Source of the DNA: Allorhodopirellula heiligendammensis
Lineage (GTDB): Bacteria > Planctomycetota > Planctomycetia > Pirellulales > Pirellulaceae
Assembly (NCBI RefSeq): GCF_007860105.1
Contig: NZ_SJPU01000001.1
Span: 2,685,326 to 2,749,325 of the forward strand
Length of the DNA stretch: 64,000 bases
Direction of reading: 5' to 3'
Below, in pieces: positions 50,477 through 64,000 of the stretch. A program made the position numbers and the translations under genes. Position 1 is the stretch's first letter, and the number at the start of each line of letters is the position of its first letter. Below the pieces are notes generated by a model. It did not search any database. It worked only from the letters and a program-made list of their open reading frames with translations, and was not told the origin of the DNA.

Positions 50477-50600
50477 TGGCCTTGGCCGCATGGGTCGGCT
50501 AACAAGTCTACAGTGAACCATTCACTGTGCCCGCGATCGGGTCGCGACGAGGCTCCGGGCCGAGGACGCAAGTCCCCGGCTCGGCGAATCCCGATACTCG

Positions 50601-50783
50601 CTAGAGCGTCAGCAGGCCAGCAAGGTCTGAAAAATCTCGGCGACGCTCGCTTCCGTCGGATGAAACAATCTCCGTCGTAGTGGACGTCTGTCGATGGGAC
50701 AAGGCTTCAGTAGGTTTATCAGGTGTCATCAGCGGACGGGCACCGGCAATTGCCTCTATCGCGGCTTCAAGTGCAGTGCTCAT
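50601..50783 (-). CDS. Small hypothetical protein, possible last cassette gene
   Basis: A 60-residue frame (MSTALEAAIEAIAGARPLMT...) with ATG at 50783, on the cassette strand. Just upstream (about 50800-50820) is a sequence resembling the R' side of the attC-like sites found further right (GGTGGCGATGTGCAGG). The first 20 residues look helical. No family is recognised, and the short length makes it uncertain. Confidence 0.4.
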   Translation of the reverse strand: MSTALEAAIEAIAGARPLMTPDKPTEALSHRQTSTTTEIVSSDGSERRRDFSDLAGLLTL

Positions 50784-51077
50784 TTAGCGTCCAGTAACTC
50801 ACTTCGGGTAATGGTGGCGATGTGCAGGTCGGCACCTTTAATTTGCCATTTCGAAACGCCTCTCTACCGCGACTCGCTTGCATCGGAGGGGACGCCGCTT
50901 TTTCTCGTCGTCGCGCGATAGTGGATGCGGTGGAGTACAGGTCCCTCGGGTGTCTTGCCGTGAGTTTCAACAGTGACCAACCCGATTTCTGTTGTGCGAT
51001 GCATCGGCTTTGGAGTGAATCGGTGAAGACGCAATCTTCAGACCTCGAGAGAGTGCGATCAGTTCAGTGACGTGACG

Positions 51078-51692
51078 CTACCGATCACCCGGCGGGCGCT
51101 GTTGATCCTCCGCTTTCAAATCGCCCCGACTCTCTGACTCGGGTGTAGCGGTTTGCTTTCGCTCTTGGTTCGCTGCTTCGTCGTCAACCGCCGTGAAACG
51201 CACTTTACTGATTGATGCCGACTCCAGTCGTTGGAGAAAACAGATCACAACCTTGCTTGGCACCGGCCGCAACGAGCGAAATGTGACGGTGTCGGTCTCG
51301 ATGTTGACAATAAACGACACGCCCGTCGGCGACAAAGCCTGTTTGGCAGCCACGACCTGCGAAACCGTAATGCCGTCGTAACCCAGGTCAGTCGCTGCGT
51401 CCATCGCCGCCGTCATGCAGCTCAGCGGTAGTTCTCCATCGACTAGAATTGTCGCTTTCGCGTCATCTAGCGTAAGAGTCATTCGCTGCCTAGTTTCGGC
51501 AGCATCAAGCCCGCTGCCCGCGGCTAGCGTTAACACCATGAGGATCACGTGAATGCATGTCAACGTTGGGCTCCGAAATTTTTGATTGCATTGACGAAAG
51601 GTAGCGGTGTGCCGGAGGCGGGATTTCGCTGGCAAGCACACAGAAACGGCGACCACCGCCGCTTCGTCACCGGTCGCATGGTAATCTCGCAT
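51078..51692 (-). CDS. Secreted hypothetical protein
   Basis: A 204-residue frame on the cassette strand. A hydrophobic signal-like stretch (IHVILMVLTLAAGSGLDAAE, about residues 47-66) suggests the true start may be internal. The mature part has TILVDGELPLSCMTAAMDAA and VSQVVAAKQALSPTGVSFIV, vaguely like the periplasmic domain of ExbD/TolR, but the match is weak. The C-terminal tail is charged. It ends only 22 bp after... the next upstream gene begins its own end at 51714, so the two cassette-strand genes are closely packed. Confidence 0.55.
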   Translation of the reverse strand: MRDYHATGDEAAVVAVSVCLPAKSRLRHTATFRQCNQKFRSPTLTCIHVILMVLTLAAGSGLDAAETRQRMTLTLDDAKATILVDGELPLSCMTAAMDAATDLGYDGITVSQVVAAKQALSPTGVSFIVNIETDTVTFRSLRPVPSKVVICFLQRLESASISKVRFTAVDDEAANQERKQTATPESESRGDLKAEDQQRPPGDR

Positions 51693-51713
51693 TTGTTCGA
51701 ACCAAGCGAAACG

Positions 51714-52088
51714 TCAGTCTATGAGAACAACATGGTATCCGACGGCAACAAGTGAGACCACGATCGAAGTAATCGCAAACACACGATGCATGGTGGTACG
51801 AGTGAAGATCGCGCAGATCAGCCCGAGAACTACGGACAATGTACCAGCCAGACAAATGTAATTTACGAAGGTCGCCATGACGGAGTTGTGGTTCCATGGT
51901 CCGCCGGTGGACAGCGTCGCGCCCGGGAGGGGTATTTGAGCGGTAGACCAAGCGTAGCACCATGTGCACGCAACGAGCGTCAGCAGTCCAACAAGCGAAC
52001 CAAACGCACACACGAACGGCAGACGCGACGCTTTGCAACCATGCCATTCGGAGTTTGCTTCCGTATGGATTTCATCAGTCATCAGCAT
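51714..52088 (-). CDS. Small membrane protein
   Basis: 124 residues from the ATG at 52088. Three hydrophobic helices are visible: FVCAFGSLVGLLTLVACTWC, FVNYICLAGTLSVVLGLICA and VFAITSIVVSLVAVGYHVVL. No family is recognised. The ATG lies just after the R' side of an attC-like site (52103-52187), the position expected for a cassette gene. The longer TTG frame runs back into that site. Confidence 0.65.
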   Translation of the reverse strand: MLMTDEIHTEANSEWHGCKASRLPFVCAFGSLVGLLTLVACTWCYAWSTAQIPLPGATLSTGGPWNHNSVMATFVNYICLAGTLSVVLGLICAIFTRTTMHRVFAITSIVVSLVAVGYHVVLID

Positions 52089-52102
52089 GCAGTGTCTTGT
52101 CG

Positions 52103-52187
52103 GGATTACGTTGGCGATCACGGCGCGGCGACGAATAATTTGCAATCGTTAAAAGACGCGACGTCGCCGGTTCCGTCACCATTGCAT
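52103..52187 (-). repeat. attC-like cassette recombination site (degenerate boxes)
   Basis: Arms 52113-52133 and 52162-52180 are imperfect inverted copies (left GGCGATCACGG...CGGCGACG against right CGTCGCCGG...TCACC). The outer boxes are decayed: GGATTAC (52103-52109) where GGxxAAC is expected, and ATTGCAT (52181-52187) where GTTxxxx is expected. Its left arm closely resembles the site at 52650. Confidence 0.55.
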
Positions 52188-52214
52188 GATCATCCGGAAT
52201 ACGGTTTGTCATCG

Positions 52215-52526
52215 CTAGGAATACACGCAGGGGAGGATTGAATTGATGATTGCAATACAGCGAATTCCGATCCATCCGTCTGCGAGAGCTGAAGACCCGA
52301 CAATCAAGCAAGTGCGATCCGTAATCTCGAGCAATGATATGCGGTGCATACGCTTCACGTCGCTCGTCCTCGTCCACTCAGTTTCACCGTGAAGCAGGTG
52401 CCAATAGCGCGGTTTCCAATAGGACATATGAATCTCCGAGGGGCCCAGCTTTGCACCTGCAATCATTACGTTAGCGACGCGAATGAAGCCAGTTCCGCCT
52501 TCCCAGAACCAGCTGAGCACTTCCAT
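52215..52526 (-). CDS. Small hypothetical protein, probably membrane-associated
   Basis: A 103-residue frame from an ATG at 52526. One hydrophobic stretch near the C-terminus (CLIVGSSALADGWIGIRCIA) could be a membrane segment. No family is recognised. It sits between two attC-like sites (52103-52187 and 52650-52740) and on the cassette strand, which is the main support for calling it a gene. Confidence 0.45.
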   Translation of the reverse strand: MEVLSWFWEGGTGFIRVANVMIAGAKLGPSEIHMSYWKPRYWHLLHGETEWTRTSDVKRMHRISLLEITDRTCLIVGSSALADGWIGIRCIAIINSILPCVYS

Positions 52527-52649
52527 GTTATGGATGCGGGCCTCTGAAATACGAATGGTTACAACCTTTCAAAATGGCTCAAGTTGAATGTTCCGTAACT
52601 CGCTCCGACCACGGCAGACGCCAGCGACTCAGGAACTCTTGCAACAGTC

Positions 52650-52740
52650 GGTGAACGTTGGCGATGTGCGGGCGGCGGCGAATCACTCACCACTGCGAAA
52701 ACGGTACTCAACGCCGCACCGCCGCGATCGCGTGTTTACT
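52650..52740 (-). repeat. attC-like cassette recombination site
   Basis: In + coordinates, box GGTGAAC (52650-52656) faces GTTTACT (52734-52740). Arms 52660-52680 and 52712-52731 are imperfect inverted copies (GCGAT...GGCGGCG against CGCCGC...ATCGC). Total 91 bp. The right box overlaps the stop codon of the neighbouring membrane-protein gene, as R'' boxes often do in cassettes. Confidence 0.75.
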
Positions 52741-53236
52741 CGCTTCGAGCATGGAATAAATTGAGTGTCCGAACAAATTCAGCAGCGGCAACCGTTGCTA
52801 CTGGAGCCGCAATCACGGCGATGTAAAGGTCATTGTACCACGGCAGAATGTCGTGTAAGGGAAACCCGAGCAAGCGACGGGGTAAAGGTGCTACGACGAA
52901 AAGTAGCGAGACAAGCAATCCTGTGAAACACGTTGTTTCCACAAAGATCCCAGTAATACTCAGCGAGCCGATTGGGTTGCAGCGCCGGCGCATAGCACGA
53001 TAGCAAGAGCACAAGAAAAACGAGAGCGTAGCAACAATGCAACAACCGATCGCCACACCCAATCGATCCGAACCCATTTTGCCCGCGATTTCTTGGAATC
53101 CTCCAAACAAGCCAAATGTCGTAAACAAGCCGATGAATGCGCCGAGAACGCGAGCGACACTTGACAACGCAAGCCATGCAATCCAGTTGTGTGATTCTGC
53201 TGGCTCTGTTTGCGATACAGATTCGTACGGATTCAT
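52736..53236 (-). CDS. NPYE-type small membrane protein
   Basis: 166 residues from the ATG at 53236. It opens with MNPYESVSQTEPAESHNWIA, the short N-terminal motif I associate with many planctomycete membrane proteins. Four hydrophobic segments follow, including VLGAFIGLFTTFGLFGGF, GVAIGCCIVATLSFFLCS, TTCFTGLLVSLLFVVAPL and IAVIAAPVATVAAAEFV. Function is unknown. The ATG is 27 bp from the R' box of the attC-like site at 53264. Confidence 0.75.
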   Translation of the reverse strand: MNPYESVSQTEPAESHNWIAWLALSSVARVLGAFIGLFTTFGLFGGFQEIAGKMGSDRLGVAIGCCIVATLSFFLCSCYRAMRRRCNPIGSLSITGIFVETTCFTGLLVSLLFVVAPLPRRLLGFPLHDILPWYNDLYIAVIAAPVATVAAAEFVRTLNLFHARSE

Positions 53237-53263
53237 TTCATTGCCGTGGGGTCGTTCAAAAGC

Positions 53264-53355
53264 AAATAACGCTAGCACCAGCCGGGACGGGCGAACTTGT
53301 GACAAGCAGACGATAAAACAGACCGCCCGTCCTTGGTTGCATGCGATGGTTCTGT
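53264..53355 (-). repeat. attC-like cassette recombination site
   Basis: Box AAATAAC (53264-53270) and box GTTCTGT (53349-53355) enclose arms 53275-53293 and 53324-53340, which pair strongly: GGGACGGGCG against CGCCCGTCC, then CCA against TGG, with unpaired bases between. Length 92 bp, identical to the sites at 61385 and 63165. Confidence 0.8.
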
Positions 53356-53410
53356 CGTCTTCGGTACCGTTTCTCGGTCTGTCCCAGTCGGCATCTTATA
53401 CGGCAAGGCT

Positions 53411-53878
53411 TCAGTCTGTAGCACTATTCTCCACGGTTTCATCGGATGATGAATCACGTCTCCTAGTTCGTCGGCGAGACCGACGAAAGCGATCGTAAAA
53501 GAACGCCCAAATCGCGGCAACGAGCCAAATTGTGATGACAGCAATCAGTGCACCGGCAGGCATGCTGCCGGTCGAAACGCCAACGCTTGTAAGTATCAGA
53601 ACGGTCATCGGTGGCACGATGCACGCGAAGAATGCTTTAGTGGCGTTTGACATAGTGCCATGAATTAAGCGATTGGTTGGTGGTATCAATAATTGCGGCA
53701 ACCTATGTGCATGTTCGATCCACAGAACGCTGGCCATCAGCGTCCCGTGGTGTAAATCAATTTGGCAAGTCCAGTCTCGACGCGACCCGGTTGCATGGCA
53801 TCGCTCTTCGCCGGTTAGGAACCAGCGTTTCAGGGTCACGAAGGTTCGTTGACGCTCAACCACACTCGGCTTCGGCAC
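53411..53878 (-). CDS. Hypothetical protein with two C-terminal membrane helices
   Basis: 155 residues if started at the GTG at 53878, which falls just after the R' box of the attC-like site at 53881; codon usage from there looks coding. A later ATG (53653) gives an 80-residue form that keeps the membrane part (FFACIVPPMTVLILTSVGVS and AGALIAVITIWLVAAIWAFF) and an Arg/Ser-rich tail. No family is recognised. The choice of start is uncertain. Confidence 0.5.
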   Translation of the reverse strand: MPKPSVVERQRTFVTLKRWFLTGEERCHATGSRRDWTCQIDLHHGTLMASVLWIEHAHRLPQLLIPPTNRLIHGTMSNATKAFFACIVPPMTVLILTSVGVSTGSMPAGALIAVITIWLVAAIWAFFYDRFRRSRRRTRRRDSSSDETVENSATD

Positions 53879-53880
53879 GA

Positions 53881-53966
53881 CTTTAACTCGTAACGGCGGA
53901 CGGAGAGTTGATTGCCCGTTAAAGCAAACGCCACAAGCCGACCTACCGTGCATGTCACTGTTCTGC
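53881..53966 (-). repeat. attC-like cassette recombination site
   Basis: Box CTTTAAC (53881-53887) and box GTTCTGC (53960-53966), 86 bp apart in total. Inner arms ACGGCGGACGG (53893-53903) and CCGACCTACCGT (53938-53949) pair over about nine bases with bulges. The GTTCTG-side sequence resembles that of the 53264 site. The right box lies inside the 3' end of the next gene. Confidence 0.6.
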
Positions 53967-54443
53967 CTTCGTTTGGAATCGCGGAAGTCGCCCCCACCGT
54001 TCCTCTGCGTCATATGCATCTACAGGAAAATTCGGGTCACTGACGACACCCATCCAGAAGTCAAAGTAAGTGAGCGAAGTGTGCAATACAAAATCATCGG
54101 GAATGAAGCTTTGTCTGGGGTACATCTCGTCGTGGAAGATAAAACACATCAGGAAGGAATCTAAGTCGATTGCGACGGGGTCACCGTTCAAGCCACCTGC
54201 GATTGTCAAGTATCGACGAACGTACCACGGCAGATAGAGCTCTTCAGTGTTGAGACTCTCGAGTTGATTTACGGGTGCAATGGAAAAATGACGCAATGAC
54301 ATCCAGTCATCGTAGCCAAACTCAGTGATTGATTCGACAATCTGCTGCGGCAATCCATTGCCATTGAGGAAGCTGACGGCGGCTTCGTTCACATTGACTT
54401 TGTGTGCATTCGGGTTGTCAATTGCAACTAGCTCGGCAATCAA
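53955..54443 (-). CDS. Hypothetical protein, possibly SUKH/SMI1-KNR4-like
   Basis: 162 residues from a TTG at 54443 with a strong GGAGG site nine bases upstream. The pattern YLTIAGGLNGDPVAIDLDSF followed by CFIFHDEMYP resembles the core of SMI1/KNR4 (SUKH) proteins, in which a GDxVAID-type strand and a nearby HDE loop recur. Many such proteins are immunity proteins for toxins. The match is by eye only. The gene is flanked by attC-like sites at 53881 and 54474. Confidence 0.55.
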   Translation of the reverse strand: MIAELVAIDNPNAHKVNVNEAAVSFLNGNGLPQQIVESITEFGYDDWMSLRHFSIAPVNQLESLNTEELYLPWYVRRYLTIAGGLNGDPVAIDLDSFLMCFIFHDEMYPRQSFIPDDFVLHTSLTYFDFWMGVVSDPNFPVDAYDAEERWGRLPRFQTKAEQ

Positions 54444-54473
54444 AACAAATGGCCTCCAATGGCAGGACGTTGG

Positions 54474-54540
54474 CGTTAACAGGGCCGCTGATAAAAACCT
54501 ATGATATCAAATCCCGCGTCATCGGCGGCTCCCGTTTACC
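54474..54540 (-). repeat. attC-like cassette recombination site (short form, 67 bp)
   Basis: Box CGTTAAC (54474-54480) and box GTTTACC (54534-54540). GTTAAC-AGGGCCGCTGAT (54475-54492) pairs with ATCGGCGGCTCCCGTTTAC (54521-54539) with only a few bulges and mismatches. It is one of the clearest arms pairs of the array and overlaps the 3' end of the DUF4279 gene. Confidence 0.8.
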
Positions 54541-55020
54541 GCTTTGTTCTGCCGCGTTGCTGGCCTGTTCGTTGCCAACTCCGTAGTAGTCGAGACGGAC
54601 CGAAACTCCTGCGTCTCCGAGTTGACGCAGGGTGGCCGCTGGTATCTCAAAGTCGCAGAGCTGCTCTGCGAACAGCCCTATGAATACCGAAACTGACCCG
54701 CCTGTTTCGTCTATTCTTCGAGTTAAGTCAATCGCATCGGATCTTTGTGTGTTGATCAGGTTTTGTAGGAATTCCGGCACGTCGTGACCGGCAACGATTT
54801 TGAGATCAATACTCCAGTGGTTTTCGTCATATTTTCTGGTGAGCAGGCCTCCGTCACGTCTTTGCCGCCGCTCGCCACGCCGCTTCACTCTTTTGGGTTC
54901 CTGTTTGAACGCGGCTGTCAATTCATTGGGCTCTACCAACGGATGCTGGACATGCAACGAAGCGACAAATCGGTAGTCGTTGAGTCCTGCGGTTACCCGT
55001 GATTCGGATCGAGCTGGCAT
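54499..55020 (-). CDS. DUF4279-domain protein
   Basis: 173 residues from the ATG at 55020 (MPARSESRVTAGLNDYRFVA). The order of elements fits DUF4279: an N-terminal strand, PLVEPNELTAAFKQEPKRVK, a Trp in ENHWSIDLKI, VPEFLQNLINTQRSD, a central strand SVSVFIGLFAEQL, and a final LRQLGDAGVSVRLDYYG. The function of the family is not known. The frame is open much further upstream, but that part is antisense intron and a neighbour's shadow. It ends inside the 54474 site. Confidence 0.78.
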   Translation of the reverse strand: MPARSESRVTAGLNDYRFVASLHVQHPLVEPNELTAAFKQEPKRVKRRGERRQRRDGGLLTRKYDENHWSIDLKIVAGHDVPEFLQNLINTQRSDAIDLTRRIDETGGSVSVFIGLFAEQLCDFEIPAATLRQLGDAGVSVRLDYYGVGNEQASNAAEQSGKREPPMTRDLIS

Positions 55021-55034
55021 GTCGGTGGCGCTAA

Positions 55035-55086
55035 GGCAGAATGGTGGCGATATGCAGGCGGCGGCGAACGACTCAACCACGGTGCA
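55035..55086 (-). repeat. attC-like site, R' half, split by an intron remnant
   Basis: GGCAGAATGGTGGCGATATG and the following GGCGGCGGCG match the left halves of the sites at 52650 and 61824, but the GTT box has become ATT. The right half is separated by the intron remnant; its box GTTATCC lies at 55255-55261, overlapping the stop of the next gene. Confidence 0.55.
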
Positions 55087-55254
55087 GTACGCCCAACATG
55101 GACGTGATCTTGTGGGTTGAGAATTTCCTGTACCAAGTTCCGGTTTCTTTCTACGAGGCAGTATACCAAAGGTAATCCAACAGAAAGACAGTACGAGCCG
55201 AGGACAACTGCGGCGAGGTGACCGACCGTGGAGAGGAAGCCTGCGAAGACGATC
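55087..55254 (+). mobile_element. Group II intron remnant A (5' end only)
   Basis: About 168 bp almost identical to the first part of the introns at 58972 and 61898, beginning GTACGCCCAACATGGACGTG and continuing through the GGCGAGGTGAC segment of domain I. Identity ends at about 55254, directly before the GTTATCC box. No domain V or protein remains, so it is inactive. It lies on the strand opposite to the cassette genes. Confidence 0.8.
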
Positions 55255-55255
55255 G

Positions 55256-55771
55256 TTATCCGCCAGAACGCATGTCAGGATCAGCGTCAATCGCATCCTG
55301 TATCTGCGGAACGGTTTCGTACTGCTTGGCGTGCCACAACAGCATGTACGCCCGCGAGGTATCGCCATCGGCGAGATAGCGCAGAAATCGCGGCCATATA
55401 TAGTCTGCCAAGTTCGCATTGTCGTTAGTCCATCCAACCCACTCATCTCGGTTACGGACCAGCGGATAGTACGCCATAGTGTGCCCATCACGCCATTGAG
55501 CGTTGAAACGAGCGATCTCAACTCGGCTCGAAATGGCATTCGCCTCGCCGTAGCGATCAGCCAGTAGGTCAAGCAATGGGTTCTCGATTGCGTGTGGATT
55601 AGAACGCCAGATCGCGAGCGAAGTGCCAGGCAGCACATACTCAACGGTATTTGTTTGACGGCAACGCGAAAGGTCAATGGTAACAATGCAGCCTTGGCCG
55701 ACGACAAAAGACGATGCGACGTAGACCGTAGTTAGAAGCATGACAACGCTAAGAAGTATTCTGTGTCTCAT
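55256..55771 (-). CDS. Secreted or membrane-anchored hypothetical protein
   Basis: 171 residues from the ATG at 55771, with GAGTGAGGA directly before it. Residues 5-25 (ILLSVVMLLTTVYVASSFVV) form a signal peptide or anchor. The rest is polar with aromatic clusters (EWVGWTNDNANLADYIWPRF) and no recognised family. The stop codon lies within the GGATAAC box of the adjacent attC-like site. Its start is 10 bp from the GAATAAC box at 55781. Confidence 0.65.
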   Translation of the reverse strand: MRHRILLSVVMLLTTVYVASSFVVGQGCIVTIDLSRCRQTNTVEYVLPGTSLAIWRSNPHAIENPLLDLLADRYGEANAISSRVEIARFNAQWRDGHTMAYYPLVRNRDEWVGWTNDNANLADYIWPRFLRYLADGDTSRAYMLLWHAKQYETVPQIQDAIDADPDMRSGG

Positions 55772-55827
55772 TCCTCACTCGAATAACGCTACCGATCATC
55801 GCGAGAGATTCTCCACGGTCAAAACGC

Positions 55828-56739
55828 CTAACTCAGCGACTCGGGTGTATCGGATGGGCCACTTCTGTGTTGCTTGAAAAACGCGGATAACCGATTGGCC
55901 AGCCACTCGCGGAACTCCAAGGTCATCGGTGGACAATGCTTGCAGTCGGGAATAACCTCGCCCTCAGAATTCGGGACTACATCGCAAATCCGCCGAACCA
56001 CTTCTGCACCCGGGAACGATATGTCGTTGTCTGCCCCCAGCACAAGGACCGGCATACTCAGCTTCGTCAGCTGCTCGTTGGGCACGATTGGGGGGATTCG
56101 CAAATCAAACGGCATGTCTCGCAGCGACTCAGCAAAGTACATCGCCCAATCGTCGTCCCACGTTGTGAACAAAGGTGCAAGAAGTCGACGCAAGTTCTTA
56201 TCCGTTGAACATATGCGGTAACGAATCATCGGCCAAGCCATCTTTGCCAGCCCATCGAGATGAGAACCGTTAGCGATGCCCGCGGGGACCAAAAGACCCA
56301 AGCGATCAACACGTTCGGGATTTGCGTTTGCAAACTGCCGAGCAATGAATCCTCCCCAGCTGACTCCAAATAAATTCGCAGAATCGATGTCAAGCTCGTC
56401 CATCACATCGGTCAACCACGCAGCGTAAGAATCGTCATCGAGCCGCATCCGAATTTGGGGACCATGAACCGATTGTCCCGGAATGTCCGGAGCGATCACG
56501 CGGAAATGCTCGAGAAGAGGATTAAGCTCGGAAAGTAGAAAGGATGCCCCAGTTCGCATAGAGTGTAGGCAGAGCAGTTTGGGAGCGTCGCGAGAACCAC
56601 CAAGCAACACCCTGCCAGGTCCATGACGAGAGAGCACTTGGTAACTCTCCACAGGGGAAGCGATTCGGTCAAGGAAGCGTTGAGACCAATTCTCTAGCCT
56701 CTGACGCGCTTTTTCGTTTCGCCAGGTGGTTGTCTTCAT
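55828..56739 (-). CDS. Alpha/beta-fold hydrolase
   Basis: A 303-residue protein with the catalytic triad visible: nucleophile Ser in LFGVSWGGFIA, Asp in VLVLGADNDISFPG, and His in DCKHCPPMTLEF. The oxyanion-side LCLHSMRTGASF and VIAPDIPGQSVHGP loops support it. The substrate is unknown (ester, lactone or similar). It is the longest cassette gene here. The ATG follows a GAATAAC box (56755-56761) by 15 bp. It is cytoplasmic, since no signal peptide is seen. Confidence 0.88.
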   Translation of the reverse strand: MKTTTWRNEKARQRLENWSQRFLDRIASPVESYQVLSRHGPGRVLLGGSRDAPKLLCLHSMRTGASFLLSELNPLLEHFRVIAPDIPGQSVHGPQIRMRLDDDSYAAWLTDVMDELDIDSANLFGVSWGGFIARQFANANPERVDRLGLLVPAGIANGSHLDGLAKMAWPMIRYRICSTDKNLRRLLAPLFTTWDDDWAMYFAESLRDMPFDLRIPPIVPNEQLTKLSMPVLVLGADNDISFPGAEVVRRICDVVPNSEGEVIPDCKHCPPMTLEFREWLANRLSAFFKQHRSGPSDTPESLS

Positions 56740-56790: not shown

Positions 56791-57342
56791 TTAGACGCGT
56801 AAGCCGTCCTTGAGTGCCTGACATTGCTCTGCCTCTTCCGGCGGCGTCAACTCGACCGCCATTGCCCAATCGCGATTTCGCCGCGCCCGGATCTCGACGG
56901 GATGACCAGGCTCGCAAAGCGCGGGAAGCCCGAAATGGTCGAGGAGCCCCAGGCGGAAAATGCAGTTCGCAAAACATCTGTCGTTCTCCGGGTTCAGCTT
57001 TACATCAATGTCGAACGGGGCAAGTCCGTCGCTTCCAATCCAAGTGACACCGGCCAAGTTATAGTTGTCACGTGATTGCTGACTGATTCTCAGTTCTATT
57101 ACCCCATCGGACCACCAATTCCTGAGCTTTCCCGTTGGTTCATGGCCTACACATTCGCAGATGAACCATTCGAGCAGCAACGCGATCTTCTGTTCGTACG
57201 TCTGGCCACCGATCTCGGTCGCACTTGGATCACTGCTCCAGCGTCTCAGGCATTTGGCAAGGCGTGTTTCGATCGGGAGCTTGTATTCGGGAGTGAACCA
57301 GTCGCTATCGCAAATATTGTACTCCAGGTGACAGAACGTCAA
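56791..57342 (-). CDS. Hypothetical protein
   Basis: 183 residues from a TTG at 57342 that lies within the flanking attC-like site. No family is recognised. The sequence is rich in Trp and Cys, with EQKIALLLEWFICECVGHEP and TWIGSDGLAPFDIDVKLNPE, and looks globular and cytoplasmic. Codon usage is consistent with a real gene. It is followed after 51 bp by the hydrolase gene on the same strand. Confidence 0.6.
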   Translation of the reverse strand: MTFCHLEYNICDSDWFTPEYKLPIETRLAKCLRRWSSDPSATEIGGQTYEQKIALLLEWFICECVGHEPTGKLRNWWSDGVIELRISQQSRDNYNLAGVTWIGSDGLAPFDIDVKLNPENDRCFANCIFRLGLLDHFGLPALCEPGHPVEIRARRNRDWAMAVELTPPEEAEQCQALKDGLRV

Positions 57343-57425
57343 CGATCACGTGGTCGCCGCGAGCGACTCACCAGTTCAATAAACTCAACTCGGCGACGCA
57401 CGTGCAGCGCCTGGCACCTCGCATC
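57331..57425 (-). repeat. attC-like cassette recombination site (one box decayed)
   Basis: Box ACAGAAC (57331-57337) is on the left. Arms CACGTGGTCGCCGCGAG (57347-57363) and CTCGGCGACGCACGTG (57389-57404) pair almost perfectly with two unpaired bases. The right box should contain GTT but reads GCGCCTG, although the AGGTGcCAG flank still mirrors the left side. Confidence 0.65.
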
Positions 57426-58210
57426 CGCCCTTTGCGAGCGAGACTGAGACGGCGTGTGCGTCCGGTTTGACGCAAGTGATTATAACAGAACAGGTATCGC
57501 CTGCCTGATGCTTCGGCATCGTCGTAGCGAATCGGCCTCGCTGGCCAATATCTTCCCTTCATCCCTCGAAACTCTGTCGTCATCTCTCCCCCGTTTACGT
57601 CATACCGATCTCTCTAGGAACCCGCTGCCAGCCCACGACATGAACCATCAAGGAACAGACCTACCCTCCGTACGGAGCACCGACCCACGTTGATGCGGAC
57701 CGTTCGATCTAGGATCGATCGTTTGCAGAGGATCGCAAGAACTATCCGACACTTCCCCCCAAAGAATGTGCCGTACCGGAGGGAGACCACTTGCTGCTCA
57801 TGGAAGCCTCCAGACAAGTGCTCGCCGAAACATGTCGCCAGTCCGAATCAAGTGGCTGGAACCGAGCCAGGATACCTGAGGGGACGCCGCCAGCACGAAG
57901 CGTGTTGGTCCATTGGGAATCAGAGCGTTCACACCTCGAATAGTCGTTTAATCCAGCGTCTTACTTGTTCACGTCCTACGCCGTTGTTGTAGCCGTGATC
58001 GACATCCACCGAGATGGAAACCGGTGCCATTCACCTGCGCCAGCGGAAAAAAATGGTCCATCCGAGTTTACCGTGAGTTTCGCCGCGGTGAGCCAAGTGT
58101 GGGGGATTTTCAAGGCATGGCGGTGGCGTCCGAAATTTTGTCACGCTGATGTCAACCGATCAGGTTTCACGTGCGGAAGGGGTGGAAGTACACTCAGTCG
58201 CTGGGCGATT
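57426..58210. other. 785-bp stretch without a recognisable gene
   Basis: Reading frames on both strands here are short and unlike known families. Composition suggests decayed accessory DNA. I saw no complete attC-like palindrome and no intron sequence within it. Confidence 0.4.
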
Positions 58211-58414: not shown

Positions 58415-58537
58415 TACTTGTCAAACCTTGGGCTTCATAGTCGCTGGCGATCAGCGGGTCGCGGCAATGTGATTTCCTTATTCAAAAGCGTCACCCGCGA
58501 ATTCGGTCCAGCGCATAGTGCGCCGCGTTTGTATGCA

Positions 58538-58883
58538 TCAGTCCACGTAGTACGTCCACATGCCATCCGGATCCAGTACGACGAACCCAATGCAGACAAC
58601 GCACGCTGCGACAAATGCAGTCGGGTAGCAGACCGAACCTCCGCTGCCTTCGCCACCCGTACCAACGTCCGACGAGAAAGGGATGCACAACGAAGAGCAG
58701 CGGTAGAGCGCTGAACGCCCAGTTGCCAACGCCGCCTGTGTGATCAGCCCACGGCGCCAGCAGCTGCAGTGCGAGCAAACCGCAGAAGAAGCAGACAAGA
58801 AAAATGATACCGCGATTGTTCCCGCCTCGCTCGAAGGCGGTGACCCGTTGCGTAAACTCTTCAAGTGGCAATGGAATGACCAA
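58538..58883 (-). pseudogene. Frameshifted small membrane-protein gene
   Basis: From a TTG at 58883 one frame gives two good membrane helices (GIIFLVCFFCGLLALQLLAP and AFSALPLLFVVHPFLVG) and then degenerates. The next frame, from about 58650 to the stop at 58538, gives a third helix (AFVAACVVCIGFVVLDPDGM). A one-base frameshift near 58630-58680 explains both. The start lies 12 bp after the GGCGAAC box of the attC-like site at 58895, so this was probably a cassette gene. Confidence 0.6.
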
Positions 58884-58894
58884 TGTTATACGTC

Positions 58895-58971
58895 GGCGAA
58901 CGCTGGCCGTAACCGGGTCGCGTCGAAAAGGTCTGCCATGGCAGGAACGCATGACACGCGACTCCGGTACA
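58895..58971 (-). repeat. attC-like site interrupted by intron B
   Basis: Box GGCGAAC (58895-58901), arm GTAACCGGGTCGCGTCG (58909-58925) and opposing arm GACACGCGACTCCGGTAC (58953-58970) pair well with single unpaired bases. The second GTT box is missing because the group II intron begins directly after the right arm, at 58972. Confidence 0.75.
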
Positions 58972-60240
58972 GAACGCCCAACATGGGCGTGATCTTGTGG
59001 GGTGAGAGTCCCCTGTACTTAGTTCCGGTTTCTTTCTACGAGGCAGTATACCAAATGTAATCCAACAGAAGGACAGTACGAGGCGAGGGCAACTGCGGCG
59101 AGGTGACAGACCGTGGAGAGGAAGCCTGCGAAGATGATCGATAAGCCAGCGAACAGCACGTGCTGGACTTCTTCTCGCCAAGACCTGCCAGGTTACGAAC
59201 AGAAACCTCATAGGAGGCCGACGACTCCAGGCGAGCGGGCTGCTGACCGCGAAGCCGAACCGGAAGAATGAGCGGAGGTAGATGAGGAGCTTGGGCAGCG
59301 ATAGATCACGACCCTTATTTGGGGAGAGCTGTGGACGTACCCGTGAGTAAGGCTTCGCCTGAAAGGCGGGGCGATCGGGGTGACCCGAGTCGTGTCCCCA
59401 GCAGTCAGCATCAGCCGTAGTGCTGAGCTTCCGCATCCCAGCGGAAACAGGAAGGGCCTCACGTCACTTCACAAGGAACGAACCATCCATGACCTCGACC
59501 GCCCCGAAACACACAGAAGCCAGTTCGAGCAACCACAACGGTGTCGATCACGCGAAGGCCCCGTGCTCTTCGGAGCTCCAGTCGGAGAAGACGGCCTCGG
59601 CGGTCATGGAGAAGTCAGCCTTGAACTCGCATTCATCATCTCTGATGGAACTGATTGTCGACGAATCCAATATGGAATGTGATTGGCAGAACGTCAAAGC
59701 CAACAAAGGGGCTCCTGGGCCCGATGGCATCACCCTTGGCGAATTCCCCGAGTCCTTCCGGCACCATTGGCTGGAAGTTCGTCAGCAACTACTGGAAGGG
59801 ACTTATCGTCCGGGGCCTGCCCGGCGTAAGTCGATTCCCAAACCTGATGGCAGTCAGCGGCATCTCGGTATACCCAACGTGATCGACCGTCTGATCCAAC
59901 AAGCCATCTTACAAGTCTTGACCCCGATCTTCGATCCATCTTTCAGCGAATCGAGTTTCGGCTTCCGACCACGACGCTCTGCACATGGAGCGATCAAGCA
60001 GATTCAGCATACGATTCGCAGCGGCTATCGCCGATGCGTGGACATGGATTTGTCGAAATTCTTCGACCGAGTTCAGCACGACGTCTTAATGGCGCGCGTG
60101 TCTCGTAAGGTCCACGACCGGAGATTGCTCAAGTTGATCGGCCGCTATCTGCGTGCGGGCGTGATGGTCGATGGTCTACTCCAACCCTCCGCCGAGGGAA
60201 CCATGCAAGGTGGTCCGCTTTCACCCTTGTTAGCCGCCGC
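58972..60240 (+). mobile_element. Group II intron B (3'-truncated)
   Basis: Begins GAACGCCCAACATGGGCGTG; domain I sequence is shared almost base for base with the copy at 61898 over about 400 bp. It carries the N-terminal half of an intron-encoded reverse transcriptase and stops near 60240, abutting the 3' end of a minus-strand gene. The rest of the protein and domains V/VI are lost. The first bases are GA rather than the GT of the other copies, which also argues that it cannot splice normally. Confidence 0.85.
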
Positions 60241-60256
60241 TTTGAGCAGGTCTTAG
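59489..60256 (+). pseudogene. Group II intron reverse transcriptase/maturase, N-terminal fragment
   Basis: ATG 59489 with AAGGAA upstream. The fragment keeps RT0-RT4: NKGAPGPDGITLGEF, RKSIPKPDGSQRHLGIP, FSESSFGFRPRRSAHGAIKQ, VDMDLSKFFDRVQHD and EGTMQGGPLSPLLA. It ends at once in unrelated sequence before the catalytic YADD block, so it is inactive. The protein would normally reverse-transcribe the intron RNA and assist splicing. The matching C-terminal fragment is in intron C. Confidence 0.88.
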
Positions 60257-60757
60257 ATTGCGAAAATATCGAAGAACGTAGCTTGCCGCGCGTGGGACGC
60301 CACACCCAAAAACGATCATTGTCGGCATCATAGCAGCAAAAATCATTGCGCGAGCGGGGTGCTCAGGAGCGATCCTCCATCTAAGCAGGTGGAAATCAAG
60401 AGAGATGAGAACGCATGCAGAAATGGCGATTGCTCGGGTCAACAGTGGGCTTTGATGCAGTGGCATTGTTGAGAATGAAGTCAGTACCAGCACTAGCCCC
60501 AATGTGATCGATAGATTGTTCGCTACCTCTTGCGCGAAAACCGACCATGCATCAGGACCGGGATTGTCACCGCCGAATACAAGGCCATAGTAGGAAATAA
60601 GAAAGCGAACTGGCAAGGCTCCAATTGCGAGCATGCCGACAAGAATTAGTGCATTCCAGAGAAATTCCGCCCTACCGTTTCGCGCGGAAGGGTCCAGCTC
60701 AACGTGAGGGGCGTATGGGTCAGGCTTTAACACGGTTCGTGTATCACATGCAGGCAT
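60230..60757 (-). CDS. Small multi-pass membrane protein
   Basis: 175 residues from the ATG at 60757, which begins 10 bp from the attC-like site at 60767. The N-terminus (TVLKPDPYAPHVELDPS) has a PYxP motif like the NPYE-type cassette proteins. Four hydrophobic segments follow (NALILVGMLAIGALPVRFLI, LSITLGLVLVLTSF, AIAISACVLISLDFHLL, IFAAMMPTMIVFGCG). Its last codons overlap the truncated end of intron B, showing where the deletion junction fell. Confidence 0.7.
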   Translation of the reverse strand: MPACDTRTVLKPDPYAPHVELDPSARNGRAEFLWNALILVGMLAIGALPVRFLISYYGLVFGGDNPGPDAWSVFAQEVANNLSITLGLVLVLTSFSTMPLHQSPLLTRAIAISACVLISLDFHLLRWRIAPEHPARAMIFAAMMPTMIVFGCGVPRAASYVLRYFRNLRPAQSGG

Positions 60758-60766
60758 CGCCGAGTC

Positions 60767-60857
60767 CCATTACGACACGCGTCACCCAGTACGCGTGAGA
60801 GATTCTCAATTTCAAAACCACCCGACTCGCGTAATCGGGTGCACGCGATGGTTCACC
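60767..60857 (-). repeat. attC-like cassette recombination site
   Basis: Box CCATTAC (60767-60773, AAC decayed) and box GTTCACC (60851-60857). Arms GACACGCGTCACCC (60774-60787) and GGTGCACGCGATG (60838-60850) pair with one extra base. A second internal hairpin CACCCGA/TCGGGTG lies within the loop. Total 91 bp; the right box is 13 bp from a gene stop. Confidence 0.7.
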
Positions 60858-60869
60858 GTCGGTTCGGCA

Positions 60870-61115
60870 TTACGCAGTCGTGGCGGGTGGATCGAGACGG
60901 TAACGCGATCCAAACAGGAACACACCAGCGAACGCCGCGAACAGCAGCAACATCGAGGCGATGTCTGCCGGTGTAATCAAGGCCGCAAGTGCGGCGCAAA
61001 CAACGACGGCAATACCCGCACGATAGTGCCGCTGGTTTCGGGCATAGAGCAATGCAACAGGAATCGCCAGCACGGACAGCAACAGCAATTCAACGGCACC
61101 AAGTGAAAACGGCAT
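60870..61115 (-). CDS. Small membrane protein
   Basis: 81 residues from the ATG at 61115, chosen because AGGAG lies nine bases upstream. Hydrophobic helices LGAVELLLLSVLAIPVALLY, AGIAVVVCAALAALITPADI and ASMLLLFAAFAGVFLFG fill most of the sequence. No family is recognised. The frame continues upstream without support. It is followed on the minus strand by the attC-like site at 60767. Confidence 0.7.
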   Translation of the reverse strand: MPFSLGAVELLLLSVLAIPVALLYARNQRHYRAGIAVVVCAALAALITPADIASMLLLFAAFAGVFLFGSRYRLDPPATTA

Positions 61116-61384
61116 AAGAGAGTTCTCCTGCAACAAGGAATGGGTGGAAGTCTCGCCGAGAGCACTCCGTCGGCAATTGCCACGAATGTGAAGCGAAGTT
61201 TCAAGTTTCGTTGATTTGATGGATGATGTCAAGAAAGACGAAGCATGGTTGATCGGGCACCCGAGTCCGCGATAGGCTTACCTCGACGAAGCAATCCACG
61301 CAGGCCCGACTAACGCTCGCCAGCGAGCGATCGCGACGTCTAAATCGCGACTAAGATCATCGTCCAATCGCAGAATTGTCATTC

Positions 61385-61476
61385 GGGGAACGGCGGACAT
61401 CACCGAGGACGCGCGAAAGATTCAATCATTGCCAAACTGCTTGGCTCTCGTCCTTCGATGTATTTCATTGTTCCCC
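61385..61476 (-). repeat. attC-like cassette recombination site
   Basis: Boxes GGGGAAC (61385-61391) and GTTCCCC (61470-61476) are exact complements. Arms ACATCACCGAGGAC (61397-61410) and GTCCTTCGATGT (61450-61461) pair with two extrahelical bases, and the box-arm spacers are 5 and 8 nt. Length 92 bp. This is a near-ideal attC architecture. Confidence 0.85.
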
Positions 61477-61606
61477 GCAATTTTAGCCATTAACACCCGC
61501 ATCGATCACAATTCCGCTGGCAAATGGAAATCATCACGGTCCGATCCAATCAGCAACGATCGCTCGAGTTTTCCTGACTGTGGTACTGGTTGCTGCGCGA
61601 CCGGGC

Positions 61607-61879
61607 TCATGACGAAACCGAGAATCGGCAAAGAGCGATGCCAAGAGCCAAACAAACCGTGCAAGCGAACAATGCACGCATCGTTATCGGCTTACGTCGA
61701 ATCATTTGTTGGGTTAGCCAGCACAATATGCCGAGCGTTGCCAGCACAGCAGGCCAATATTCAATCGCGTAAATCGCGATCAGGACGTCAACAGAATAGT
61801 TTTCGGCAAGCAGAATTCTGTCGGGGAACGGCGATATGCGGGTGGCGGCGAGCGACTCAACCGCTGAGCCAACGGCCAC
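61607..61879 (-). CDS. Small membrane protein, start uncertain
   Basis: The C-terminal 65 residues are convincing (VDVLIAIYAIEYWPAVLATL, GILCWLTQQMIRRKPITMRA, LFACTVCLALGIALC), giving two or three membrane helices. The annotated frame opens with a GTG inside the neighbouring attC-like site; no standard start codon lies between that site and the helices, so the true start could be a rare codon. No family is recognised. Confidence 0.5.
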   Translation of the reverse strand: MAVGSAVESLAATRISPFPDRILLAENYSVDVLIAIYAIEYWPAVLATLGILCWLTQQMIRRKPITMRALFACTVCLALGIALCRFSVSS

Positions 61880-61897
61880 TACGCCGCTCCGCCATCA
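61824..61897 (-). repeat. attC-like site split by intron C (second part at 62795-62805)
   Basis: Box GGGGAAC (61824-61830) and arm GGCGATATGCGGGTGGCGGC (from 61831) face GCCGCTCCGCC (61884-61894). The second box, GTTACCC, lies at 62799-62805 directly after the intron. Joining 61897 to 62795 restores an 85-bp site with paired arms and complementary outer boxes. Confidence 0.8.
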
Positions 61898-62794
61898 GTA
61901 CGCCCAACATGGGCGTGATCTTGTGGGGTGAGAGTCCCCTGTACTTAGTTCCGGTTTCTTTCTACGACGCAGTATACCAAATGTAGTTCGACGCAAAGAG
62001 AGTACGAGGCGAGGGCAACTGCGGCGAGGTGACAGACCGTGGAGAGGAAGCCTGCGAAGATGATCGATAAGCCAGCGAACAGCACGTGCTGGACTTCTTC
62101 TCGCCAAGACCTGCCAGGTTACGAACAGAAACCTCATAGGAGGCCGACGACTCCAGGCGAGCGGGCTGCTGACCGCGAAGCCGAACCGGAAGAATGAGCG
62201 GAGGTAGATGAGGAGCTTGGGCAGCGATAGATCACGACCCTTATTTGGGGAGAGCTGTGGACGTACCCATGAGTAAGGCTTCGCCTGAAAGGCGGGGCGA
62301 CCGGGGTGACCCGACTCGTGTGAGCAGAAGTCAGCAGAGGTCGTAGTACCGCACTTCTTCGTAGCCAGCGGAGACGGGAAGGACCGAACGTTTCTTGGAA
62401 CTACGACGGTACTTTCAAGGATGGATTGGCTACTTTCATTACGGCCTACGCAAGACGCAGTTGCAGTATCTCGACAAATGGATTCGACGGCGCATCCGCG
62501 CTTGCTACTGGAAACAGTGGTACCGAGTCCGCACGCGGGTACGAATGCTGCTGAAACTAGGAGTGCATAGGGACGAAGCCATCTCGCACGGATGCAGTGG
62601 AAGAGGATACTGGGTGATGTCATCGAGTGCTGCGATGCACGTCGCGATCTCGATCGACTATCTCAAGAAGAAGGGACTAGCGAACCTTGAGGAAATCTGG
62701 AGCAAGTTTGCTTCCAAGAAACGAACCGCCGGATGCGGCCCCGCATGTCCGGTGGTGTGAGAGGGGGCCGCAGCAATGCGGCCCCTATCTCGAT
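61898..62794 (+). mobile_element. Group II intron C (internally deleted, both ends present)
   Basis: Starts GTACGCCCAACATGGGCGTG and ends with a domain V-like hairpin (CCGCCGGATGCGG...CCGCATGTCCGGTGG around 62728-62756) and a domain VI-like GGGGGCCGC...GCGGCCCC stem ending CTATCTCGAT at 62794. The 5' 490 bp match intron B. Nearly all of the reverse transcriptase is deleted, leaving the maturase C-terminus. It might still splice with help in trans. Confidence 0.82.
62395..62760 (+). pseudogene. Group II intron maturase, C-terminal fragment
   Basis: About 120 residues of the maturase/DNA-binding end: YFQGWIGYFHYGLRKTQLQY, LDKWIRRRIRACYWKQWYRV, RTRVRMLLKLGVHRDEA and YWVMSSSAAMHVAISIDYL. This corresponds to the part missing from the fragment at 59489. 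No HNH endonuclease motif follows. It is a remnant created by deletion of the reverse transcriptase domain. Confidence 0.85.
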
Positions 62795-62816
62795 CATGGT
62801 TACCCGTCCGATGTGT

Positions 62817-63146
62817 TTATGTGTCCGGTGGGCTGCTATTGCAAGACCGATAGTACTGATTTTGCAGAACCGCGATAGCCCAACCAATCACCGCGCCGAA
62901 TAGTGAGGGGCCGAGCAAACCCGCGAACAACAGGGCACCCAATCCAGCATACGTGTAGCAGCGAGCAATTGACCAAAGTTGATCGTGGCGAACAAGGCAG
63001 ACGATGAAGAACGCCGGAACGCCAACGACAAACCCCAGCGTGAGCCCTCCAAACGAGAGCGAACGGTAATACGCGAGGGAAGCCGCTAGGACGACGAAAG
63101 CTAGCCCTGCTCTGCGTAACGAGACGTCGGTGCGTGTAGGCTTCAA
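62817..63146 (-). CDS. Small multi-pass membrane protein
   Basis: 109 residues from a TTG at 63146, the first start after the GGATAAC box at 63165. Helices AGLAFVVLAASLAYYRSL, GGLTLGFVVGVPAFFIVCLV and TYAGLGALLFAGLLGPSLFG are clear. No family is recognised. It lies between the attC-like site at 63165 and the split site restored at 61824/62799, and so forms one complete cassette. Confidence 0.7.
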   Translation of the reverse strand: MKPTRTDVSLRRAGLAFVVLAASLAYYRSLSFGGLTLGFVVGVPAFFIVCLVRHDQLWSIARCYTYAGLGALLFAGLLGPSLFGAVIGWAIAVLQNQYYRSCNSSPPDT

Positions 63147-63164
63147 GCTCGGTGCACTTCAGTC

Positions 63165-63256
63165 GGATAACGCTGGAATTCACTGGGCGTCGGGAGTTGA
63201 TCATCCACTTCGAAACGTGTCGTCACCGCCGCTCCAGTGCAATTCTCTGGTTATCC
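63165..63256 (-). repeat. attC-like cassette recombination site
   Basis: Boxes GGATAAC (63165-63171) and GTTATCC (63250-63256) are exact complements. Arms CTGGAATTCACTGG (63173-63186) and CCAGTGCAATTCTCTGG (63234-63250) pair over about 13 bases with two extrahelical bases on one arm only, the asymmetry that marks the recombinogenic strand of integron attC sites. Length 92 bp. Confidence 0.88.
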
Positions 63257-63327
63257 CCGATTGTAGCGGGTAATGCTCGTGCATTGCACCACGCGAGTGG
63301 AAAACAACGACGGAACGTCGCCAGAGA

Positions 63328-63633
63328 CTATTCAGCGTGTGGCCTAGAGTGAAGGAACGGGAGTCGATGACCAGTGCAGCAAATCCAACCGAAGCATACG
63401 AACGAAAACGCCATGATCGCAATGGCGAGTAGTCCATTAAGCGTGGGAGCGGCAAGCATGTCCAAAAAAAGACGGTAGATTGCAAAAAGAAAAAGACAAC
63501 ACATCAACCCGGAGAGGAATTGAAATATCGGTTGGGCAACGTTCGGTTTCATGTCCGTGGGCTTCGGCGTTGTTGAGGAGATCAAGATAGGTTCGTATGG
63601 ATTCAAAACAGGAGGTTCGCCTACGTCAAGCAA
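63328..63633 (-). CDS. NPYE-type small membrane protein
   Basis: 101 residues from a TTG at 63633, just after the GGATAAC box at 63637. A second TTG opens LNPYEPILISST, again the NPYEP motif seen in planctomycete membrane proteins. Two helices follow (FLSGLMCCLFLFAIYRLFL and LLAIAIMAFSFVCFGWICC). Function is unknown. It forms a complete cassette with the 63165 site after its stop. Confidence 0.68.
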   Translation of the reverse strand: MLDVGEPPVLNPYEPILISSTTPKPTDMKPNVAQPIFQFLSGLMCCLFLFAIYRLFLDMLAAPTLNGLLAIAIMAFSFVCFGWICCTGHRLPFLHSRPHAE

Positions 63634-63636
63634 GTG

Positions 63637-63715
63637 GGATAACGGCTGACATCAGCCGGCACGAGCGGAAGAGCAACCATTGCCCAAAGACACTTTCGAG
63701 TGCTCGGTTGCATGT
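63637..63715 (-). repeat. attC-like site interrupted by intron D
   Basis: Box GGATAAC (63637-63643), arm ACATCAGCCGGCACGAG (63649-63665) and opposing arm CGAGTGCTCGGTTGCATGT (63697-63715) pair with several unpaired bases. The second GTT box is not present before the intron begins at 63716 and should lie beyond it, outside the window. Confidence 0.72.
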
Positions 63716-64000
63716 GTACGCCCGACATGGGCGTGAACTTGTGGGGTGCCGCTTCCTTCGGGAAGCCAGTCCCCTGTACGAAAACGGAACTTGAACGAAG
63801 GACAGCATACCAAATGTAATCGATCAAGAAGAAGTACTAGGCGAAGGCAACTGCGGCGAGGTGACAGACCGTGGAGAGGAAGCCTGCGAATGTGGCCGGT
63901 AAGCCAGCAAAGAACCGTCGCTGGCACACGTTCTCGCCAAAGCTGCGAGGTGACGAACAGAAACGTCGTGGAGGCAGGCGGATGTTGAGGCGAGTGGCCC
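63716..64000 (+). mobile_element. Group II intron D (5' part, continues beyond window)
   Basis: Starts GTACGCCCGACATGGGCGTG and follows the same domain I order as introns A-C (GGCAACTGCGGCGAGGTGAC, CAGACCGTGGAGAGGAAGCC). It has a distinct stem-loop insertion near 63749-63770 and scattered differences, so it is a diverged member of the same family. Whether it still encodes a protein cannot be seen. Confidence 0.8.

What the first reader, a model, noticed from the sequence alone, without database searches (positions are those of the whole stretch)
50600..64000. Integron-type gene-cassette array in a planctomycete
Seen: about 17 short genes, all on the minus strand, with palindromic sites of 67-95 bp between many of them. 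Each good site has outer boxes (GGxxAAC / GTTxxxx), inner arms that pair imperfectly with extrahelical bases, and a gene start 10-30 bp from one box. Several boxes overlap the previous stop codon. Known: this is the layout of integron attC-cassette arrays. Inference: the region is a chromosomal integron or an attC cluster lacking an integrase.
Basis: partly seen in the sequence, partly recalled or inferred. Interest (0 to 1): 0.93.

Follow-up and report, generated by a model that had tools for sequence, protein, structure and literature searches.

The report
Integron array invaded by attC-targeting introns
This stretch of a chromosome, likely of a Rhodopirellula species, is a train of integron gene cassettes in which at least three of the attC joints are split by related group II introns that likely home to attC by base pairing, six to nine bases away from the point used in a clinical-type integron.

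Summary
A covariance model built from 18 attC sites of this genome (15 from outside the window) finds 16 sites in the window; all lie on the minus strand between 51,074 and 63,721, none in the other 51 kb. The 14 best show strong compensatory pairing. The genome has at least 142 such sites, 138 of them in 23 single-strand clusters, and five intI genes. The contig ends 281 bp beyond the window, so the array's own intI, attI and first cassettes are not visible. Integrons in planctomycetes are already in print.

All are antisense to the cassettes, follow attC or attC-like sequence, and lack an intact reverse transcriptase. They are related to IIC-attC introns: the family's RT is nearest to GsI-IIC, and a relative sits beside aadA1 in a class 1 integron. 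Known members mostly insert at TTGT/T in R''; these insert about 6-9 nt upstream, near the L'' bulge. Across relatives the predicted EBS1 loop covaries with the target letters. That is a new variant of a known kind.

The parts
63637..63721 (-). attC, interrupted by intron copy 3 (its 5' exon side)
   Evidence: R1 26.9 bits, E 2.7e-4
63716..64000 (+). group II intron copy 3; runs to the contig end 281 bp past the window; RT N-terminal part deleted
   Evidence: 99% to the C12 intron over 514 nt; alignment
63328..63633 (-). cassette ORF, 101 aa, no Pfam match
63165..63256 (-). attC, R boxes 7/7, extra base in L''
   Evidence: R1 71.0 bits, E 4.3e-15 (training row)
62817..63146 (-). cassette ORF, 109 aa
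61898..62794 (+). group II intron copy 2, RT N-terminal part deleted (GIIM end left); 3' end placed by comparison, inferred
   Evidence: Rfam RF02001 and RF01998; GIIM
61823..61904 (-). attC R'/L' side split by intron copy 2; an R''-like GGGTAAC lies beyond the intron at about 62,798
   Evidence: R1 33.0 bits, E 8.5e-6; joined flanks
61607..61879 (-). cassette ORF, 90 aa
61385..61476 (-). attC, R boxes 7/7
   Evidence: R1 73.3 bits, E 1.2e-15 (training row)
60870..61232 (-). cassette ORF, 120 aa
60772..60852 (-). attC
   Evidence: R1 43.2 bits, E 2.7e-8
60230..60757 (-). cassette ORF, 175 aa
58972..60240 (+). group II intron copy 1, 5' end present, RT cut off part-way, 3' end missing
   Evidence: Rfam RF02001; RVT_1; TIGR04416 positions 2-191 of 353
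58895..58978 (-). attC interrupted by intron copy 1
   Evidence: R1 36.6 bits, E 1.1e-6
58491..58952 (-). cassette ORF, up to 153 aa
58442..58518 (-). attC
   Evidence: R1 29.5 bits, E 5.9e-5
57368..57583 (-). possible cassette ORF, 71 aa (not scanned for families)
57331..57420 (-). attC
   Evidence: R1 36.4 bits, E 1.2e-6
56791..57342 (-). cassette ORF, 183 aa
55828..56739 (-). cassette ORF, alpha/beta hydrolase, 303 aa
   Evidence: PF00561 3e-21
55781..55859 (-). weak attC-like match
   Evidence: R1 12.9 bits, E 0.7
55256..55771 (-). cassette ORF, 171 aa
55087..55247 (+). group II intron copy 4, 5' piece only; its 5' exon resembles half an attC by eye but is no R1 hit
   Evidence: 91% to copy 1 over its match
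54499..55020 (-). cassette ORF, 173 aa, DUF4279
   Evidence: PF14106 7.7e-8
54462..54552 (-). attC
   Evidence: R1 44.6 bits, E 1.2e-8
53955..54443 (-). cassette ORF, 162 aa
53891..53952 (-). weak attC
   Evidence: R1 17.8 bits, E 0.044
53722..53809 (-). attC
   Evidence: R1 25.4 bits, E 6e-4
53411..53653 (-). cassette ORF, 80 aa
53264..53355 (-). attC
   Evidence: R1 43.3 bits, E 2.6e-8 (training row)
52736..53305 (-). cassette ORF, 189 aa
52650..52740 (-). attC
   Evidence: R1 40.8 bits, E 1.1e-7
52215..52526 (-). cassette ORF, 103 aa
52103..52195 (-). attC
   Evidence: R1 42.0 bits, E 5.4e-8
51714..52145 (-). cassette ORF, up to 143 aa
51078..51692 (-). cassette ORF, up to 204 aa
51074..51160 (-). 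weak attC
   Evidence: R1 25.6 bits, E 5.3e-4
50601..50783 (-). last ORF on the array side, 60 aa; no R1 hit after it

Best explanation
The region is a chromosomal integron-type cassette array in which at least three attC sites are split by group II introns related to the IIC-attC introns, which likely choose their site by reading the folded attC bottom strand and pairing a 3-4 base intron loop (predicted EBS1) with the exon. Shown: attC sites on one strand with covarying stems; four intron copies on the opposite strand, three at model-detected attC sites and one at an attC-like half site; the same arrangement in relatives. Inferred: IntI once assembled the array; intron RNA, with RT supplied from elsewhere, reverse-spliced into attC exposed as single strand; in this lineage changes in the EBS1 loop moved the insertion point from R'' (TTGT/T) to near the L'' bulge (mostly TGCA/). 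An insertion there parts R'' from the rest of the attC and would freeze the cassette. The window copies are degraded and are not expected to move on their own.
For: Array: 16 of 16 R1 hits in the window are on the minus strand inside the array; stem covariation; 142 genome hits, 138 in 23 clusters, none of mixed strand; five intI over the TIGR02249 cut-off; a textbook layout at C1:1.711-1.719 Mb with intI minus and attC plus. Intron class: the C12 RT scores 411 bits with GsI-IIC RT (6ar1), 333 with 7uim, 158 with LtrA, 116 with 6me0 (that 7uim is a IIC and 6me0 a IIB enzyme is recalled). Target: R1 finds an attC whose end lies within about 10 bases of the intron start in 33 of 47 fetched 5' flanks, each time on the strand opposite the intron. 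Without the model, 34 of 54 5' exons exceed the helix score that 10 of 300 random window stretches and 11 of 270 shuffles exceed. The C12 copy has an empty twin attC at L030:13991-14081, one mismatch from the AAC of R' to the insertion point. EBS1-IBS1: 60 of 92 base pairs at a fixed register against 28.5 +/- 4.8 shuffled, 0 of 10,000 shuffles as high; any register: 13 of 24 combinations with >=3 bp against 6.7, 3 of 5,000. Control: a class 1 integron intron (51.5% RT identity) starts with the same GTACGCCC, follows TTGT and carries ACAA in the same loop.
Against: 14 of 47 flanks give no R1 hit, among them window copy 4 (L116) and the own-genome copy L115; L099 follows a terminator-like hairpin. 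20 of 54 exons do not exceed the helix control. Shuffles ignore kinship of the introns. Some loop pairs fail (ATGC with CCTGGG 0 of 4, CGAC with CCGGGG 1, GTGG with CCTGGG 1); window copy 1 has 2 of 4, and copy 3 could not be scored (N in the loop). No splicing, mobility or cassette exchange was tested. The array's own intI and attI were not seen.
Confidence: 0.85

Rival explanations
1. The array is a CALIN: an attC cluster without intI, served if at all by integrases encoded elsewhere in the genome, and not the far end of an integron.
For: Many attC sites are degenerate (R1 12.9-44.6 bits for 14 of 16), while those of the intI-linked C1 array score 56-90. Around the helicase neighbour of the array, 12 of 12 same-genus relatives show no R1 hit in the fetched flanks of about 1.5 kb (1 of 13 loci hit, the window's own).
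Against: The contig stops in an intron repeat 281 bp beyond the window. The array reads away from that end, the direction in which an intI would be expected, and two intI (C4, C10) lie near contig ends with an orientation that could fit.
Confidence: 0.5
2. The intron insertions are not attC-specific: they are ordinary IIC introns that follow any hairpin, and attC is simply a common hairpin here.
For: L099 follows a terminator-like hairpin; most IIC introns use terminators (PMC4424553, passages); 14 of 47 flanks are no R1 hits.
Against: 33 of 47 flanks are attC by the model; 15 of the 20 rows of one well supported clade end in TGCA, a shared point inside attC.
Confidence: 0.12
3. The palindromes are dispersed REP/MITE-like repeats and not recombination sites.
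For: One element in the array (about 58,054-58,385) is such a repeat: 56 matching stretches in this genome.
Against: R1 sites are clustered and of one strand per cluster, differ in sequence while keeping pairs, and lie between ORFs.
Confidence: 0.02

Closest known systems
Sedentary chromosomal integron / CALIN
   Same: Unidirectional small ORFs separated by attC sites of about 90 bp with R and L boxes and extra bases in L''; intI of the TIGR02249 family in the genome; R. baltica treated as an integron host (PMC3108266, passages) and Planctomycetes listed as hosts (PMC2426708, passages).
   Different: At least 142 sites and five intI in one genome, over 23 clusters. I did not compare these figures with a published census.
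Group IIC-attC introns (S.ma.I2 and kin)
   Same: IIC-like RT, bottom-strand insertion in attC, antisense to cassettes, 5' end GTACGCCC and same EBS1 hairpin as the class 1 integron intron in L189.
   Different: Published majority rule: insertion in R'' at TTGT/T (PMC7923331, Background and Fig. 1 legend). The window type inserts about 6-9 nt upstream near the L'' bulge, with a different EBS1 loop.
Group IIB introns in integrons (UHB.I2, H.ha.F1/F2; PMC7923331)
   Same: Group II introns, some truncated, in cassette arrays or CALINs.
   Different: Different RT class; the H.ha. copies are 5' truncated.

Membership tests
Integron cassette array (attC) | Imperfect palindromes with pairing R''/R' and L''/L' between unidirectional ORFs | tested here: met
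Integron cassette array (attC) | Bulged (extrahelical) bases in L'' | tested here: met
   the best window sites have a one-base bulge on the L'' side in their scan alignment; not checked for the degenerate sites
Complete integron | intI next to the array | tested here: inconclusive
   contig ends 281 bp beyond the window; five intI elsewhere
Complete integron | attI and Pc | not tested
   outside the sequence available
Complete integron | IntI-mediated cassette exchange | not testable with these tools
   no assay
Group IIC-attC intron | Class IIC reverse transcriptase | tested here: met
   closest solved RT is GsI-IIC; tested on the C12 copy, not on the broken window copies; no tree with named IEP classes was made
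Group IIC-attC intron | Insertion in the attC bottom strand, antisense to cassettes | tested here: met
   33 of 47 flanks; window copies 1-3
Group IIC-attC intron | Insertion at TTGT/T in R'' (stated for the majority, not for all) | tested here: not met
   window exons end GTGCA, GGTACA, CCATCA, GCATGT; TTGT-type ends were seen only in other genera of the family and in L189. Hence filed as a variant related to this family
Active group II intron | Intact ribozyme and RT | tested here: not met
   window copies are truncated or ORF-deleted; the C12 RT frame is shifted near its C end

The most novel reading that the evidence does not exclude
Rhodopirellula integrons carry a lineage of IIC-attC introns that re-aimed itself inside attC: by switching its EBS1 loop it moved from R'' to the L'' bulge, close to the bases that the integrase reads, so that intron and integrase compete for one folded strand and each insertion locks a cassette in place. 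ORF-deleted copies sharing one deletion (window copies 2 and 3) would be non-autonomous passengers of it.
Probability: 0.5. Interest if true: 0.62.

Novelty: new variant of a known kind. Interest (0 to 1): 0.45.

Why it matters
The cassette array itself is ordinary for this genus. The introns give a natural series in which the target position inside one DNA hairpin changes together with a short intron loop. That makes the question of how IIC introns combine hairpin recognition with base pairing directly testable. It also suggests a brake on cassette mobility, since a split attC would not be expected to recombine.

Tried and rejected
Simple R/L box scans were too weak to tell attC from chance and were replaced by a covariance model. 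I first thought the introns might be class IIB, from the domain V letters and PMC7923331; the RT comparison and the class 1 integron control speak for IIC. I considered that the truncated intron at 55,247 ends by integrase recombination at a secondary site; a short GATC repeat offers a simpler deletion, and R'' is not the box that IntI cuts (recalled), so I dropped it. Placing the window array on the C2, C4 or C10 intI contigs: C2 does not fit by orientation, C4 and C10 cannot be told apart, so this is left open. PADLOC found nothing in 10 of the 18 cassette proteins. Paper searches (listings) showed me no report of TGCA-type attC insertions or of such introns in Planctomycetes, but the primary papers on IIC-attC introns that I looked up are not held, so priority is not settled.

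Rows dropped: the 47 flanks are my selection of the places that start near the intron's first base. One search found 54 distinct 5' ends in all loci then held. EBS1 test: 47 of these 54 were long enough to align, 11 of 47 were set aside as not alignable at the loop, the other 36 gave 24 different combinations, and one with N in the loop was left out (23). Tree: 37 of 54 rows, short and unalignable ones left out. The genome attC count scored 150 of 2,402 first-look candidates and is a lower bound. An earlier count said 10 of 13 same-genus genomes match the intron; one search shows 11 of 13 (20 of 60 in all).
Full report
WHAT IS THERE. The window is bases 2,685,326-2,749,325 of contig C1 of a 7.18-Mb draft genome, and C1 ends 281 bp to the right. 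The last 13.4 kb hold about 18 small ORFs on the minus strand. Of the 17 scanned (all but 57,368-57,583), two have a Pfam match above the curated cut-off: an alpha/beta hydrolase at 55,828-56,739 and a DUF4279 protein at 54,499-55,020. The left border is a plus-strand gene at 48,038-50,476, which I read as a DEAD-box helicase from its sequence motifs (recalled, no family search).

ARE THE PALINDROMES attC? I aligned 18 sites: 3 from the window and 15 from arrays elsewhere in the same genome, next to intI genes. Their consensus has 21 pairs, 17 of them with at least one compensatory change. The model R1 gives 16 hits in the window at E<=5, all on the minus strand and all in 51,074-63,721. Aligned to the model, the 14 hits with E<0.01 have 86.8% of cells paired and a covariation score of 0.529; partners slid by 1-3 columns give at most 0.119. 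This alignment is fitted to the structure and leans towards it; three of its rows trained the model. Scans of boxes and arms without the model did not separate the array from background, so the case rests on the model, the clustering and the single strand.

GENOME CONTEXT. R1 finds at least 142 sites in the genome (E<=0.05). 138 fall in 23 clusters and no cluster mixes strands. Five intI pass the TIGR02249 cut-off. One cluster, C1:1.713-1.719 Mb, has the standard layout, with intI on the minus strand beside plus-strand attC sites. In the genus, 13 of 13 genomes have R1 sites (31-150 each, lower bounds) and 12 of 13 have intI at E<=1e-60. The best named integrase locus is Rhodopirellula rubra. 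Integrons are thus normal for this genus; R. baltica as an integron host and Planctomycetes as hosts are in print (PMC3108266 and PMC2426708, passages seen). The helicase neighbour has no R1 hit beside it in 12 of 12 same-genus relatives, within fetched flanks of about 1.5 kb.

INTRONS IN THE ARRAY. Rfam finds group II intron domains on the plus strand at 59,183-59,303, 62,109-62,229 and 62,298-62,384, and RT and maturase pieces lie at 59,420-60,256 and 62,395-62,760. Comparison of copies gives four in the window: 55,087-55,247 (5' piece), 58,972-60,240 (RT cut off), 61,898-62,794 (RT start deleted; 3' end inferred) and 63,716 to the contig end (same deletion). A longer copy lies on C12 (L035). 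Its 434-aa RT frame scores best with GsI-IIC RT (411 bits), then 7uim (333), LtrA (158) and 6me0 (116), and passes the TIGR04416 cut-off. It is shifted in frame near its C end relative to window copy 2.

WHERE THEY INSERT. On the intron strand, which is the attC bottom strand, the 5' exon is the R', L', centre and L'' of an attC; an R''-like box follows the intron in the two copies whose 3' side could be read (copy 2 and C12, both with CAT after the intron). For C12, the joined flanks match an empty attC at L030:13991-14081 from the AAC of R' to the insertion point with one mismatch, and the three bases after the intron continue it. Of 47 fetched 5' flanks from this and related genomes, R1 finds an attC ending within about 10 bases of the intron start in 33, always on the other strand. 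The 14 without a hit include window copy 4, the own-genome copy L115, one insertion after a terminator-like hairpin (L099) and some that look like worn attC by eye (L103, L107). A test without the model gives 34 of 54 exons above a helix score exceeded by 10 of 300 random window stretches and 11 of 270 shuffles. In the class 1 integron of L189, an intron with 51.5% RT identity follows ...GAACGAATTGT, in line with the published TTGT/T rule (PMC7923331, Background). Most exons of the window's clade end at ...TGCA, about 9 nt earlier, next to the unpaired L'' bases; copy 3 and the C12 group lie some 2-3 nt after that. These distances were read by eye. TTGT-type ends were seen only in genomes of other genera of the family.

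HOW THE SITE IS LIKELY CHOSEN. The hairpin GGCGAG-loop-CGAAGCC holds a loop that pairs with the last exon bases: ACAA with TTGT, UGC with GCA, CGUG with CACG, ACC with GGT, CGA with TCG, AUG with CAT. That this loop is EBS1 is inferred from this pairing. At one fixed register, 60 of 92 possible pairs form in 23 combinations, against 28.5 +/- 4.8 in shuffles, 0 of 10,000 as high. In any register, 13 of 24 combinations have 3 bp or more against 6.7, reached by 3 of 5,000 shuffles. Failures: ATGC, CGAC and GTGG exons pair with 0 or 1 base at the fixed register. Shuffles do not remove kinship. On the intron tree, with the loop masked in the rows where the pattern could read it, one well supported side (20 rows, 100/100) holds the window copies 1 and 2, and 15 of its 20 exons end in TGCA; the R'' label needs two changes on 37 rows.

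MECHANISM AND LIMITS. Best reading: a once active integron array, entered repeatedly by introns that take attC as a folded single strand and use 3-4 base pairs to set the exact point. Insertion parts R'' from the rest, so the site would be expected no longer to recombine. This is inferred. None of the window copies has an intact RT, so movement would need RT in trans. Not shown: splicing, mobility, intI in cis, cassette exchange.

VERDICT. The array is a new member of a known kind. The introns are a new variant of a known kind. I could not read the primary IIC-attC papers, so the claim that the shifted site is undescribed rests on the searches alone.

Noticed in passing
window 58054-58385: A palindromic repeat of about 330 bp sits in the array; 56 matching stretches in this genome, 27 in G006, 2 in G010, 1 in G012 and none in the other 9 same-genus genomes. 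It looks like a MITE.
   Followed up: partly
L032 17939-19327 (minus): The integron integrase has about 139 residues before its TIGR02249 match with no convincing Pfam domain; all 16 full-length intI matches in the genus lie in open frames of 448 aa or more, one with a stop inside.
   Followed up: partly
window 61898-62794 and 63716-64000: Copies 2 and 3 share one deletion of the RT start, while their 5' halves belong to different intron subfamilies: chimeras, or a non-autonomous form.
   Followed up: partly
window 55247 and 60240: Two intron copies are cut off where an R''-type box (GTTATCC, GTTAGCC on plus) begins. Deletion limited by the neighbouring stop codon, or something more; not resolved.
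   Followed up: no
L029 12253-19373: At the end of contig C2 the cassettes read towards the nearby intI, with a run of N between them; a scaffolding error or a true inversion.
   Followed up: no
L099 and L056: An intron of the same family sits after a terminator-like hairpin instead of an attC.
   Followed up: partly
G000 contigs C1, C2, C8, C13, C14: Twelve partial matches to the integron integrase model, two with stop codons inside, besides the five full ones: decayed intI or other tyrosine recombinases.
   Followed up: no
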